Source: Candidatus Muproteobacteria bacterium RIFCSPHIGHO2_01_FULL_65_16 (GTDB taxonomy: Bacteria > Pseudomonadota > Gammaproteobacteria > Acidiferrobacterales > Sulfurifustaceae). From it: 11,982 nt of DNA. The notes below the pieces were generated by a model. That model did no database searches and had not been told where the DNA came from. It saw nothing but the letters and a program-made list of their open reading frames with translations. Made by a program: the position numbers and the translations under genes. Of this stretch, positions 4,056-11,324 are shown piece after piece (the stretch's first letter is position 1; each line of letters opens with the position of its first letter). Location: NCBI GenBank assembly GCA_001785175.1, contig MFSY01000018.1, positions 6,581 through 18,562 on the forward strand, in the 5' to 3' direction.

Positions 4056-4166
4056 TATGATTATTTGACGCAAAGGCGCAAAGAAAACCGAACGGCGCTA
4101 CGCGCCGAAAATCTAAAAACTCTTATTTTTCTTTGCGCCTTTGCGTCTTTGCGTCAGAAATTCATA
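4056..4166. repeat. Palindromic intergenic element, family A copy 1
   Basis: The core, 4066-4156 (91 bp), starts with TGACGCAAAG and ends with its inverse. The left arm has one further RCGCAAAG unit and the right arm has two. A central hairpin, CGGCGC TAC GCGCCG, is followed by AAAAT and an AAAAACTCTTA stretch. Ten more bases at each end match the other copies (TATGAWNNTY consensus), giving 4056-4166. The right end abuts the fabH stop codon at 4167-4169. The element takes up nearly all of the fabH-fabD gap and has the same orientation as copy 2. No target-site duplication is evident. Confidence 0.9.
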
Positions 4167-5135
4167 TCAATACTTAAGCAGCACCGAGCCCCACGTGAAC
4201 CCGCCGCCGAAGGCCTCCATCAGCACGGTCTCGCCGCGCTTGATGCGGCCGTCGCGCACCGCCTCGTCGAAGGCGAGCGGGATCGAGGCCGCGGAGGTGT
4301 TGCCGTGGCGCTCCACGGTGAGCACCACGCGCTCCATCGGCAGATCGAGCTTCCTGGCGGTGGCGGCGATGATGCGGATGTTCGCCTGATGCGGCACGAG
4401 CCACTTGATGTCGGCCTTCTGCATGTGGTTCGCCGCGAGCGTCTCGTCCACGATGCGCCCGAGGGTGTTGACCGCGACCTTGAACACCTCGCCGCCCTCC
4501 ATGTTGAGATGCGCCTGGCCCTTCGTCACCTTGTCGTAGCCCTGGGAGATGCCGGCCGGGACGGTGAGCAGGTCCTTGTACCGGCCGTCGGCGTGCAGAT
4601 GCGTCGAGACGATGCCGGGCGCGTCGGCGGCGGTGAGCACCACCGCGCCGGCGCCGTCGCCGAAGAGCACGCAGGTCGCGCGGTCGGTCCAGTCAATAAT
4701 GCGCGACAGCGTCTCGCTGCCCACGATCAGGGCGCAGCGCGCCGACCCCGTGTGGATGAACTTGTCGGCGATGGCCAGGGCGTAGATGAAGCCGGTGCAC
4801 ACCGCCTGCACGTCGAAGGCGGGACAGCCGTGGATGCCGAGCCGGTCCTGCAGCAGGCAGGCGGTGCTGGGAAACACGCGGTCGGGGGTCGTGGTCGCAA
4901 GGACGATGAGATCAATGTCCTGCGGTGTGACGCCCGCGGCCTGGATCGCCCGGCGCGCGGCGTGTTCGGCCATGTTGCCGGTGGTCTCGCCGTCGGCGGC
5001 GATGTGGCGCTCGCGAATTCCGGTGCGCTCGACGATCCACGCGTCCGTGGTGTCAACCATCTTCTCCAACTCGGCGTTGGTCAGGACCTTCTGCGGCAGG
5101 TAGCCGCCGGTGCCGGCGATACGCGCGAAACTCAC
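4167..5135 (-). CDS. fabH: 3-oxoacyl-ACP synthase III (FabH)
   Basis: FabH starts fatty acid synthesis by condensing acetyl-CoA (or another short acyl-CoA) with malonyl-ACP, and so helps set chain initiation rate and branched or straight chain type. The 322 residues are of normal length. The catalytic triad is visible: Cys113 in DVQAVCTGF, His249 in VPHQANIRI and Asn279 in ERHGNTSAAS. The conserved LVGSETLSRIIDWTDR-like region (137-152) and the terminal GGGFTWGSVLLKY are present. The start is GTG at 5133-5135, overlapping the plsX TGA by 4 bases (GTGA), which points to coupled translation. The N terminus MSFARIAGTGGYLP fits the family. Its stop directly abuts a palindromic repeat element. Acyl-chain preference cannot be read from the sequence. 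Confidence 0.97.
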   Translation of the reverse strand: MSFARIAGTGGYLPQKVLTNAELEKMVDTTDAWIVERTGIRERHIAADGETTGNMAEHAARRAIQAAGVTPQDIDLIVLATTTPDRVFPSTACLLQDRLGIHGCPAFDVQAVCTGFIYALAIADKFIHTGSARCALIVGSETLSRIIDWTDRATCVLFGDGAGAVVLTAADAPGIVSTHLHADGRYKDLLTVPAGISQGYDKVTKGQAHLNMEGGEVFKVAVNTLGRIVDETLAANHMQKADIKWLVPHQANIRIIAATARKLDLPMERVVLTVERHGNTSAASIPLAFDEAVRDGRIKRGETVLMEAFGGGFTWGSVLLKY

Positions 5136-6151
5136 GCCGGCTGCCCCTGCCCGTGCAGGGCGGCGAGTTCCGCGCCGATCCGCTGCGGCACGCGGTTGCG
5201 CACCTCGCTCAGCGCCTCCAGGATCGCGAATTCGAACGCCAGGGCGTCGGCGCCGCCGTGGCTCTTGATGACCGTGCCGTTCAGCCCGGCGAACGTGGCG
5301 CCGTTGTAGCGCCGGTGATCCACGCGCCGGCGGAAGGCGCGCAGCACCGGCAGCGCCACCAGGGCCGCGAGGCGCGTGAACAGGTTGCGCTGGAATTCCT
5401 GCTTCATGAAATGGGAGATCATCTGCGCCAGCCCCTCGCTGGCCTTCAGCGCCACGTTGCCGACGAAACCGTCGCAGACGATGACGTCCATGTCGCCGGT
5501 GAAGATCGCGTCGCCCTCGACGTAGCCGCAGTAGTTCAGGTGGCTCGCGCGCAACAACACGGCGGCCTTCTTCACCACCTCGTTGCCCTTGATCTCCTCC
5601 GCGCCGACGTTGAGCAACGCGACGCGCGGCCGCTCCTTGCCCTCGGTGGCGCTGACCAGGATCGAGCCCATGATGGCGAACTGCAGCAGTTGCTCCGGGG
5701 TGCAGTCCACGTTGGCGCCGAGATCGAGGACGTGCATATGTCCGCGGATCGTGGGCAGCGTGGTGACGATGGCCGGCCGGTCTATGCCCGGCAGGGTCTT
5801 GAGCACGAAGCGCGCCGTGGCCATCAGCGCCCCGGTGTTGCCGGCGGAGACGGCGGCGTCCGCCGCTCCCTCCTTGACCAGGTTGACGGCCACGCGCATG
5901 GAGGAATCCTTCTTGCCGCGCAGCGCCTGGGCCGGGGGCTCGTCCATCTCCACCACCTCCCCGGCGTGCCGGATGACGAGGCGCTCGCTCTCCGCCGCGT
6001 TATGGCGCGCCAGCTCCTGCGCCAGGCGTTCCCGGCGCCCGACCAGGATCAGCTTCAGCTCGGGTTGCTTGTCGAGGATCGCCAGCGCCGCGGGCACGGT
6101 GACGCTCGCGCCGTGATCGCCCCCCATGGCGTCGAGGGCAATTGTGATCAA
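5132..6151 (-). CDS. plsX: Phosphate acyltransferase (PlsX)
   Basis: PlsX converts acyl-ACP and phosphate to acyl phosphate, the acyl donor used by PlsY to make lysophosphatidic acid. It therefore joins the fatty acid genes downstream to phospholipid synthesis, acting as a peripheral membrane protein. The 339 residues match the family. Typical segments are LDAMGGDHGAS at 6-16, VSAGNTGALMATARF at 101-115, LDLGANVDC at 142-150 and CDGFVGNVALKASEG at 226-240. The start is TTG at 6149-6151, supported by AAAGGA at 6159-6164 with 7 bases of spacing and by the canonical MITIALDAMGGD N terminus. The nearest downstream ATG would remove the conserved first strand. It begins 38 bases after rpmF and overlaps fabH by 4 bases. 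Confidence 0.96.
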   Translation of the reverse strand: MITIALDAMGGDHGASVTVPAALAILDKQPELKLILVGRRERLAQELARHNAAESERLVIRHAGEVVEMDEPPAQALRGKKDSSMRVAVNLVKEGAADAAVSAGNTGALMATARFVLKTLPGIDRPAIVTTLPTIRGHMHVLDLGANVDCTPEQLLQFAIMGSILVSATEGKERPRVALLNVGAEEIKGNEVVKKAAVLLRASHLNYCGYVEGDAIFTGDMDVIVCDGFVGNVALKASEGLAQMISHFMKQEFQRNLFTRLAALVALPVLRAFRRRVDHRRYNGATFAGLNGTVIKSHGGADALAFEFAILEALSEVRNRVPQRIGAELAALHGQGQPA

Positions 6152-6158
6152 GGTTTGA

Positions 6159-6164
6159 TCCTTT
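6159..6164 (-). promoter_or_regulatory. Ribosome binding site fixing the plsX TTG start
   Basis: AAAGGA on the minus strand lies 7 bases before the TTG at 6149-6151. With no upstream in-frame ATG giving the family N terminus, this site decides the start. Confidence 0.7.
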
Positions 6165-10509: not shown

Positions 10510-10514
10510 ATTTG

Positions 10515-10636
10515 TATGAATCTTTGACGCAAAGGCGCGAAGGCGCAAAGGAAGTCCGAACGGCGCTTCGCGCCGAAAATACAAAAAACTCTTATTTTTT
10601 CTTTGCGTCTTTGCGCCTTTGCGTCAAACGATCATA
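10515..10636. repeat. Palindromic intergenic element, family A copy 2
   Basis: The core, 10525-10626 (102 bp), has TGACGCAAAG ends, each followed by two more 8-bp units, the CGGCGC TTC GCGCCG hairpin, and AAAAAACTCTTA. The 10-bp outer ends are TATGAATCTT on the left and TATGATCGTT read inward from the right. The right end stops exactly at the base before the maf ATG (10637), and the left end begins 5 bases after the pycB stop. It therefore fills the pycB-maf gap and leaves maf with no visible SD. It has the same orientation as copy 1 and is inverted relative to copy 3. Confidence 0.9.
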
Positions 10637-11215
10637 ATGAAAAAACTCATTCTCGCCTCCTCGTCGCCCTACCGCCGCGAGTTGCTCGCGCGATTGATGA
10701 TCCCGTTCGCGGCGATCTCACCGGAGGTGGATGAGACGCCGCGGCCGGGCGAAACGCCGCAGGCCGTGGTCGAACGGCTCGCGCTCGAGAAGGCGCAGAA
10801 GATCGCCGCGGCCCATCCGCACGCGCTCGTGATCGGCTCCGATCAGGTCGCGGTGTACAACGGCGAGATCGTCGGCAAGCCGCACGGCCATGAGCTGGCG
10901 GTGGCGCAACTCAAGAAGGCCTCCGGCCGCACGGTCACGCTCTACACCGGGCTCGCGCTCGTGAACTCCGACACCGGCCGCGCGCAGCGCGAGGTGATCC
11001 CCTATCGCGTCACCTTCCGCCGGCTCACGGACGAGCAGATTGAAAACTACCTGAGAAAGGAACAACCCTACGCCTGCGCCGGCAGCGTCAAATCCGAAGG
11101 CCTCGGCATCGCGCTGCTGGAGAGATTCGAGGGCGACGACCCGAACACGCTCATCGGGCTGCCGTTGATCCGGCTGGTGCGGATGCTCGAGAATGAAGGA
11201 ATTACTGTTATATGA
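10637..11215 (+). CDS. maf: Maf-like nucleoside triphosphate pyrophosphatase, YceF type
   Basis: Maf proteins hydrolyse non-canonical nucleotides to the monophosphate and pyrophosphate; the YceF group prefers 7-methyl-GTP. The 192 residues match the family. The N-terminal LASSSPYRREL is the Maf signature, followed by EVDETPRPGE and IGSDQVAVYNGEIVGKP. The C-terminal part, CAGSVKSEGLGIALLERFEGDDPNTLIGLP, carries SEG and RFEGDDPNTL, which separate YceF from the dTTP/UTP-acting YhdE group. The ATG at 10637 gives MKKLILASSSP; a TTG six codons earlier lies inside the repeat element and is rejected. No SD is visible. The gene sits between inverted copies of the element, one abutting its start and one containing its stop. 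maf is a usual neighbour of yceD and sppA. Confidence 0.94.
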   Translation: MKKLILASSSPYRRELLARLMIPFAAISPEVDETPRPGETPQAVVERLALEKAQKIAAAHPHALVIGSDQVAVYNGEIVGKPHGHELAVAQLKKASGRTVTLYTGLALVNSDTGRAQREVIPYRVTFRRLTDEQIENYLRKEQPYACAGSVKSEGLGIALLERFEGDDPNTLIGLPLIRLVRMLENEGITVI

Positions 11216-11324
11216 TCATCTGACGCAAAGGCGCGAAGGCGCAAAGAAAAGTTAAGAGTTTTTTGGATTTTCGGCGCGAAGCGCCGTTCGGATTTCCTTT
11301 GCGTCTTTGCGTCAAAAGTTATTA
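11211..11324. repeat. Palindromic intergenic element, family A copy 3 (inverted)
   Basis: The core, 11221-11314 (94 bp), is the reverse orientation of copies 1 and 2: on the plus strand the AAGAGTTTTTT stretch comes first, then ATTTTCGGCGC GAA GCGCCG. Counting from the end that corresponds to the left of copy 1, its arms have one and two extra 8-bp units. Its left outer end TATGATCATC contains the maf TGA stop (11213-11215). Its right outer end reads TAATAACTTT inward, a weaker match, and contains the sppA TAA (11322-11324). The element thus occupies the whole convergent maf-sppA junction, where it could also work as a two-way terminator. Confidence 0.88.

What the first reader, a model, noticed from the sequence alone, without database searches (positions are those of the whole stretch)
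4056..11324. Three copies of a palindromic element with variable 8-bp arms in one 7-kb stretch
Copies at 4056-4166, 10515-10636 and 11211-11324 share TGACGCAAAG ends, arms made of RCGCAAAG or GCGCGAAG units, a CGGCGC/GCGCCG hairpin and an AAAAACTCTTA stretch. The number of extra 8-bp units differs between copies and arms (1 and 2; 2 and 2; 1 and 2), so the arms seem to gain or lose units. Similar runs of TTTGCG-type units occur in other bacterial genomes, so the unit itself may not be new. A short palindrome with growing arms and no transposase suggests a non-autonomous element moved or copied in trans.
Basis: partly seen in the sequence, partly recalled or inferred. Interest (0 to 1): 0.7.

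Follow-up and report, generated by a model that had tools for sequence, protein, structure and literature searches.

The report
Octamer-armed hairpin elements between genes
The three copies belong to a family of short DNA hairpins, built from repeated 8-letter units and wedged between genes, that is scattered through this bacterium and found in many other bacterial phyla; it looks like an old non-autonomous mobile element whose mover is still unknown.

Summary
The genome has 165 matches to a two-unit probe (reversed control 0); 48 left/right arm pairs were extracted. Typical arm: TA-NNA-NNN-TTTG-RCGCAAAG-RCGCRAAG-RCGCAAAG. Cores of 20-241 bp are mostly unrelated; the window copies share theirs. 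Of 37 copies that could be oriented, 32 lie between co-directional genes, often touching stop and start codons. Orthologous copies in another genus differ by whole 8-bp units. One clean empty site was found: two relatives' genes overlap as TGATG where G001 carries a copy. Load differs widely among relatives. At the same junctions other relatives carry sister families with changed units. The octamer hairpin occurs in at least nine phyla (some phyla recalled). No mover was found: no tandem arms beside G000's Y1 or IS630-type genes, flanks partly cut by contig ends. Within the arms, coding-strand pairing shows no selection. Best reading: a non-autonomous, TA-ended palindromic element family, mostly old, moved in trans by an unidentified enzyme. 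The architecture was described in Geobacter metallireducens (2009) as predicted regulator sites; I found no print of the junction switching in my searches.

The parts
4056..4166 (+). Copy 1, between fabH (stop 4167-4169, minus strand) and fabD (start 4039, minus strand). Arms: 2 units left, 3 units right; core 47 bp with GGCGC/GCGCC hairpin
   Evidence: the same junction is occupied in G001, G005 and G011 with a related core
4056..4067 (+). outer end TATGATTATTTG of copy 1 (family end TA-NNA-NNN-TTTG)
   Evidence: end profile over 81 arms without CAGAG units: T 72, A 78, A 79 of 81 at -12, -11, -8
10515..10636 (+). Copy 2, between the pyruvate carboxylase subunit B / oadA-type gene (stop 10507-10509) and maf (ATG 10637, directly after the element). 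Arms 3+3 units, core 50 bp
11211..11324 (-). Copy 3, inverted, between convergent maf (stop TGA 11213-11215 lies inside the TATGA end) and an sppA-like gene (minus strand, stop 11322-11324 inside the other end). Arms 3+2 units, core 50 bp
   Evidence: same junction occupied in G001 with a different core
4108..4130 (+). shared core stretch AAAATCTAAAAACTCTTATTTTT (also 10577-10599; reverse complement in copy 3)
   Evidence: (family D10)

Best explanation
The copies are members of a non-autonomous, hairpin-forming insertion element. Each element has a TA at both ends and two arms of two to four 8-bp units. The arms are inverted to each other and enclose a core that is mostly not conserved. Shown: multicopy dispersal, TA ends, insertion into a gene junction that is closed in relatives, unequal load between related genomes, and unit-number change between orthologous copies. 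Inferred: the arms are the recognition ends of a trans-acting enzyme (a TA-targeting transposase as for Correia/RUP-type elements, or a hairpin-recognising HUH enzyme as for REPINs). Also inferred: any sequence between two arms can be carried; inserted copies then persist for long times, lose or gain units by slippage, and have their units rewritten by recombination with other copies. Elements survive mainly in gaps between co-directional genes, where they least disturb promoters.
For: 165 probe matches versus 0 in the control; 48 arm pairs. TA at both outermost positions in 36 of 47 testable pairs and no longer target duplication; end profile. Empty site: between alignable gene sequences G001 has 157 bp where G005 has 29, and 162 bp where G012 has 34; in both relatives a 396-codon frame ends in TGA and an open frame starts at the overlapping ATG (TGATG), whereas in G001 the stop and the next start are 139 nt apart. 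Load of CGCMRAGNCGCMRAG, both strands summed: G000 237, G001 125, G013 119, G016 117, against G014 4 (same genus as G013), G002 5, G003 6, G009 6, G012 2. Orthologues L286/L047 and L285/L033 differ by 8-bp blocks in one arm. Similar cores are over-represented on the same contig: 6 of 30 same-contig pairs against 16 of 1098 others. The two arms of an element differ more than random pairing predicts: first base of unit 2 discordant in 35 of 48, permutation mean 24.6, p 0.001, which fits two distinct ends. Cross-phylum spread.
Against: No mover is linked. Cores are mostly unrelated, unlike classical MITEs. Six or more junctions are shared between two genera, so recent movement is not shown. The identical terminal dinucleotide is barely commoner within pairs than between re-paired ends (identity 0.84 versus 0.79), so TA may simply be part of the inverted end. 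Only one clean empty site of this flavour was found; its flanks carry about 13 and 16 further bases, and a partly similar stretch (query 1030-1300, 71%) lies about 1.2 kb away on the same contig, so local duplication may have played a part. The discordance at base 5 of unit 2 is not significant (28 of 48, p 0.09), and arm discordance could instead reflect selection against perfect palindromes.
Confidence: 0.5

Rival explanations
1. The arms are chromosomal binding sites (global regulator, nucleoid protein, or other) kept and homogenised by selection and gene conversion; they do not transpose.
For: Units are conserved while cores drift; junctions are shared across genera; the unit type at one junction differs in both arms together between relatives. 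Paired tandem-octamer sites in Geobacter metallireducens were published as predicted IHF/HU sites (PMC2700814: passages and supplementary legends read).
Against: An empty site at an operon junction and a 30-fold load difference within one genus (G013 119, G014 4) fit gain and loss better. Placement flush with stop and start codons, with 1 of 37 oriented copies at a divergent junction, is not where transcription regulators usually bind (recalled).
Confidence: 0.2
2. REPIN-like elements moved by a Y1 (RAYT/TIRYT) transposase acting on hairpin arms.
For: Same general plan as REPINs: conserved inverted ends, variable spacer, extragenic (PMC3116915 passages). RAYT-like genes flanked by TIRs unrelated to REPs are published (PMC3733652 section 16). 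G000 has 3 Y1 matches, one just under the curated cut-off. Y1 number and load correlate within the family (Spearman 0.58, n=19, p 0.009), less over all 31 genomes (0.34, p 0.064).
Against: No tandem arms beside the three G000 Y1 genes, although L062 and L063 begin at a contig end; L063 has its own GTAGGTTGGGG-type palindromes. G007 (87% complete) has 25 matches and no Y1 hit; G009 has 8 Y1 hits and background load. No relative of the three G000 proteins within 109 element loci from other genomes (self-hits as positive control); more distant Y1 types were not searched there. One arm alone is not a palindrome as a REP is.
Confidence: 0.15
3. RNA-level elements: 3'-end stabilisers, processing sites or terminators between operon genes.
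For: 32 of 37 oriented copies lie between co-directional genes, 25 of 40 stop-side ends within 5 nt of a stop codon; long stable stems. In the 12-nt outer ends G-U-type differences slightly exceed A-C-type ones (36 versus 24, p 0.16).
Against: In the arms of 32 co-directional copies G-U-type and A-C-type differences are equal (31 and 33, p 0.90), so pairing in the transcript is not visibly kept. No T-run follows the stem in the three window copies. RNA function alone does not explain the same octamer in many phyla or the empty site.
Confidence: 0.1
4. Uptake-signal-like words: octamer dialects used for DNA uptake, often as inverted pairs between genes.
For: Neighbouring genomes carry one-letter variants of the unit, reminiscent of published uptake-sequence dialects in Neisseriaceae (PMC3630211, search listing only).
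Against: The units studied here are tandem sets in paired arms; load varies strongly within a genus. Single-word counts and competence genes were not tested.
Confidence: 0.05

Closest known systems
Geobacter metallireducens class 1 and class 2 'predicted global regulator binding sites' (PMC2700814, Additional files 7 and 8; legends read)
   Same: Class 2: three tandem repeats TCTCCGTS[Y] per site; class 1: four tandem octamers GTTGCTYN; sites paired on opposite strands at variable distance; 47-48 aligned sequences each
   Different: Other unit sequence; interpreted there as possible IHF/HU sites; no orthologous-junction comparison, empty site or cross-phylum distribution in the passages I read
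Correia/NEMIS, ERIC and RUP elements (PMC2229807, passages including Table 1)
   Same: Small non-coding inverted-repeat elements with TA at the termini, dispersed, transposase absent from the element
   Different: Those are sequence families with conserved internal sequence (recalled) and no octamer units in the ends; for RUP an IS630-type transposase with matching ends is proposed, none found here
REPINs and RAYTs (PMC3116915 passages; PMC3733652 abstract, section 16 and passages)
   Same: Inverted conserved ends around a variable spacer; extragenic; REPs also sit between unidirectional or convergent ORFs and can supply a stop codon
   Different: REP units are themselves palindromic with a GTAG tag and occur beside RAYT genes; here the unit is a non-palindromic octamer repeated in tandem and no RAYT link was found
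TAACTGA heptamer repeats of Beggiatoaceae (PMC4679880, passages)
   Same: Short tandem units, mostly intergenic, patchy across distant lineages
   Different: Direct repeats (one inverted set reported), mostly ahead of start codons

Membership tests
MITE with TA target (Correia/RUP/ERIC kind) | terminal inverted repeats | tested here: met
   48 arm pairs; fold z-scores of the window copies
MITE with TA target (Correia/RUP/ERIC kind) | TA at termini or TA target duplication | tested here: inconclusive
   TA at both ends in 36 of 47, but re-paired ends agree almost as often and TA may be part of the end; the one empty site has extra flanking bases
MITE with TA target (Correia/RUP/ERIC kind) | ends match those of an autonomous IS in the genome | tested here: not met
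   only PF13358 (IS630-type) and PF01797 were tested: the PF13358 gene of G000 and of G016 has no tandem arms; none found in G001, G005, G011, G013; other transposase families were not tested
MITE with TA target (Correia/RUP/ERIC kind) | conserved internal sequence | tested here: not met
   22 similar pairs among 1128 core comparisons; small subfamilies with shared cores exist (L023, L064, L072, L080)
REPIN/RAYT | arm is itself a palindromic REP with GTAG tag | tested here: not met
   arms are tandem non-palindromic octamers
REPIN/RAYT | related sequence flanks a RAYT gene | tested here: inconclusive
   no tandem arms around three Y1 genes of G000, but two loci are cut by a contig end and the assembly is 79% complete
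Geobacter paired tandem-octamer sites | three or four tandem ~8-bp repeats, paired on opposite strands at variable distance, many copies | tested here: met
   published definition from legends
Geobacter paired tandem-octamer sites | binding by IHF/HU | not testable with these tools
   prediction only in the source
known RNA family | match in Rfam | tested here: not met
   0 matches at gathering score in the window

The most novel reading that the evidence does not exclude
Inverted tandem-octamer hairpins form one pan-bacterial class of mobile element, with 'dialects' of the unit (CGCAAAG, CGCAGAG, CGCCAAG, CACRGAG, CGCRGAT, CAGGATT) that replace one another at the same gene junctions. They would be moved by one still unrecognised, widely shared enzyme system that reads the octamer repeats and ignores the core, and that inserts at stop-start junctions.
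Probability: 0.25. Interest if true: 0.85.

Novelty: new variant of a known kind. Interest (0 to 1): 0.52.

Why it matters
If these are mobile, they are a common but unclassified form of bacterial repeat, present in at least nine phyla, that can separate overlapping genes and whose unit sequence changes between relatives. That makes the search for the enzyme a defined problem: it should be shared by high-load genomes such as G013 and G016 and be missing or silent in low-load congeners such as G014. It would also caution against reading such paired tandem sites as regulator binding sites.

Tried and rejected
RAYT by linkage: no tandem arms at the three Y1 loci of G000, two of them truncated; no relative of those three proteins near 109 loci (positive control); only partial load correlation. 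IS630: one gene in G000, no arms, 5 of 31 genomes have a match. RNA-pairing selection: equal G-U and A-C counts in the arms. Long target duplications: none. Rfam: none. Virus carriage: 5 matching stretches in the viral collection. Literature by sequence: 9-mers matched 384 papers, and the 40 listed looked like unrelated studies; six 15-mers gave 0 papers. A first slot classification used a faulty expression that demanded a spacer between units and was replaced, which still misses the F-type element of G015 at fabH/fabD (visible) and the CAGGATT-type of G018 at maf/sppA (visible). L279 gave no usable empty site. The orientation test uses codon bias trained on window genes, not a gene caller; 11 of 48 pairs were dropped before the 32/4/1 count because a flank was missing or scored too low. 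Of 15 G001 stretches fetched, 4 aligned across an element with held G000 loci, 1 aligned only beside it, and 10 had no long match among the held G000 loci, which cover only surroundings of copies; whether G000 lacks those 10 is unknown.
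Full report
WHAT IS IN THE WINDOW. The three copies are real and placed as stated. They lie at the fabH/fabD, oadA-type/maf and maf/sppA-like junctions (gene names from NCBIfam; the sppA-like match is below that model's cut-off and comes from a partial gene). Copies 2 and 3 match copy 1 at E 2.7e-25 and 3.2e-29, and all three fold as single-stranded DNA much better than shuffles. The palindrome extends to TATGA...TCATA. The TGA stop of maf lies inside the TATGA end of copy 3, and copy 2 ends directly before the maf ATG.

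THE FAMILY IN THE GENOME. The window belongs to an incomplete assembly (1.7 Mb, 135 contigs, 79% complete). The probe ACGCAAAGRCGCAAAG with up to one mismatch has 165 matches against 0 for its reversed control. From the loci fetched (not all matches were fetched) 48 left/right arm pairs and 20 lone arm-like stretches were extracted; a few pairs belong to sister unit types and some lone stretches are probably chance. Unit numbers (left, right) are 3,3 in 25, 2,3 in 10, 3,2 in 8, 2,2 in 2, 3,4 in 2 and 4,3 in 1. Cores run from 20 to 241 bp. Only 22 of 1128 core pairs are similar beyond shuffles: 6 of the 30 same-contig pairs and 16 of the 1098 others. The window trio is one local group; a small subfamily on four contigs (L023, L064, L072, L080) also shares a core. 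Core sharing is thus rare and locally enriched, while arm sharing is genome-wide. The outer ends of 81 arms read T, A and A in 72, 78 and 79 at positions -12, -11 and -8. TA stands at both ends in 36 of 47 pairs; no longer direct duplication is seen.

POSITION. Using codon bias trained on window genes, 37 of 48 pairs could be oriented on both sides: 32 between co-directional genes, 4 convergent, 1 divergent. Of 40 stop-side ends, 25 lie within 5 nt of the stop codon; of 34 start-side ends, 15 lie within 5 nt of the start; 12 of 32 co-directional copies are flush on both sides.

RELATIVES. Exact TTGACGCAAAGRCGCAAAG occurs in 6 of 60 genomes, G000 included. With the looser CGCMRAGNCGCMRAG the load, both strands summed, is 237 in G000, 125 in G001, 119 in G013, 117 in G016, 86 in G005 and 79 in G011 (controls 0 to 5). 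It is 2 to 6 in G002, G003, G008, G009, G012 and G014 (controls 1 to 3). This pattern does not count the CACRGAG, CGCRGAT and CAGGATT types, so G008, low here, still carries CACRGAG elements. At least six junctions are occupied in both G000 and G001: fabH/fabD, maf/sppA, L276/L077, L285/L033, L286/L047 and L288/L015. At fabH/fabD the cores of the two genera agree in 45 of 47 bases while fabH DNA is 83% identical. At maf/sppA their cores differ. In L286/L047 and L285/L033 one arm differs by an 8-bp block, direct evidence that arms gain or lose units.

SISTER FAMILIES AT THE SAME JUNCTIONS. In the same family (18, 17, 17 and 17 genomes scored), fabH/fabD is occupied in 10 (CGCAAAG 7, CGCRGAT 2, CACRGAG 1). 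oadA/maf is occupied in 9 (CGCAAAG 2, CGCAGAG 2, CGCCAAG 2, CGCRGAT 2, CAGGATT 1). maf/sppA is occupied in 8 (CGCAAAG 4, CGCRGAT 2, CGCCAAG 1, CACRGAG 1). fabD/fabG is occupied in 5, all CAGGATT. The first three junctions were chosen because G000 has copies there, so their occupancy is biased upward; fabD/fabG was not chosen for that reason. Within genus g6 the fabD/fabG gap holds a CAGGATT element in G005, G013 and G018, a remnant with another insert in G016, and is short in G011, G014 and G017. Several units are one letter apart, and mixed elements exist (for example L018, L032, L276).

EMPTY SITE. G001 locus L282 carries a copy at 1030-1136 between two genes. G005 and G012 align on both sides (78 and 75%; 81 and 75%): G005 has 29 bp where G001 has 157, and G012 has 34 bp where G001 has 162. 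On the coding strand both relatives read TGATG: a 396-codon open frame ends in the TGA and a long open frame starts at the overlapping ATG. In G001 the corresponding stop and start are 139 nt apart. G005 and G012 belong to different genera and agree, so insertion in the G001 lineage is the simpler reading. About 13 and 16 further bases flank the copy in G001 and are unexplained, and a partly similar stretch lies about 1.2 kb away on the same contig.

FUNCTION TESTS. If the stem were kept in the transcript, G-U differences between arms should exceed A-C ones on the coding strand. In the arms they are 31 and 33 (p 0.90); in the 12-nt outer ends 36 and 24 (p 0.16). RNA pairing is therefore not visibly selected in the arms. 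The two arms of an element differ more than random pairing predicts: the first base of unit 2 is discordant in 35 of 48 (permutation mean 24.6, p 0.001), the unit-2 word in 42 of 48 (p 0.018), and in 30 of 36 when only CGCNAAG-type elements are used (p 0.043); base 5 alone is not significant (28 of 48, p 0.09). This fits two distinct ends, or selection against perfect palindromes.

SEARCH FOR A MOVER. G000 has three Y1 transposase matches, one just under the curated cut-off. Near them lie only isolated single units, no tandem arms, but two of the three loci start at a contig end; one is flanked by its own GTAGGTTGGGGTGAGC palindromes. Y1 number and load correlate modestly (0.58 in 19 family members, 0.34 in 31 genomes), with clear exceptions (G007: no Y1 hit; G009: 8 Y1 hits and background load). 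An IS630-type gene occurs in 5 of 31 genomes, among them G000 and G016, without arms there. In the 109 loci from other genomes the three G000 Y1 proteins found nothing (they find themselves in the control). The largest ORF cluster spans 12 of the 109 loci; two members are ABC transporters, and members of the next two clusters are FGE-sulfatase and short-chain dehydrogenase proteins, that is, common families. Other transposase families were not tested.

DISTRIBUTION. These include Planctomycetota, Acidobacteriota, Verrucomicrobia, Bacteroidetes, Chlorobiota, Chlamydiae, Spirochaetaceae, Chloroploca and Thermoflexus, Sorangium, Desulfo-type and alpha-, beta- and gammaproteobacterial records (phyla of named genera are recalled, and many records are metagenome bins whose labels may err). 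Their outer ends differ by lineage (often TCTC, TTCA or TTTG before the first unit). Only 7 of 369 genomes of the window's class, G000 included, have a strict pattern, and 5 viral stretches do, so the spread is wide but patchy.

COMPARISON. The closest published description is Geobacter metallireducens classes 1 and 2: three or four tandem octamers, paired on opposite strands at variable distance, called predicted global regulator sites (PMC2700814; passages and supplementary legends). The class 2 unit TCTCCGTS reads, on the other strand, like the CACGGAG units seen here in G008. Geobacter bemidjiensis has multicopy sequences in 12% of intergenic regions (PMC2996986, passages). TA termini are listed for Correia, ERIC and RUP (PMC2229807, passages). 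The plan resembles REPINs (PMC3116915, passages) but the tag and linked gene were not found. Searches showed no paper on octamer unit switching at orthologous junctions; only listings were seen for most papers, and most subscription papers are not in that library.

VERDICT. A real, wide, mostly old family of non-autonomous hairpin elements; mobility in the past is supported, the mover is unknown. New variant of a known kind.

Noticed in passing
window 6424-6531: A further palindrome of the CGCRGAT type (ACCGCGGATTAACGCGGATT ... ATCTGCGTTCATCTGCGGT) beside the 6553-7086 ORF, one of the sister families seen at other junctions in relatives.
   Followed up: partly
window 2997-3015 and 3017-3035: Two copies of ATGACACGGTTCTTCTCTC one base apart at the start of fabG.
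   Followed up: no
L063 (G000:C120), both sides of the Y1 gene: A Y1 transposase gene flanked by GTAGGTTGGGGTGAGCGAAGCGAACCCCAAC-type palindromes, a REP-plus-RAYT-like arrangement separate from the octamer family.
   Followed up: partly
L010 1503-1785 and L056 1501-1734: Nested palindromes: octamer arms enclosing another inverted element with GTCATGC...GGAATGAC ends; in L010 a further pair CTAACTTAAGG / CCTTAAGTTAG lies between, as if later elements entered the loop of earlier ones.
   Followed up: no
L029 about 800-950: Runs of AGCTATCAGC- and AAGCTTGAAGC-type tandem units in an intergenic region of G000, another short-unit repeat type.
   Followed up: no
L128 and L134, 3' of maf: G013 and G015, with 81% identical fabH DNA, carry almost identical elements 3' of maf, suggesting recent transfer or copying of that junction.
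   Followed up: no
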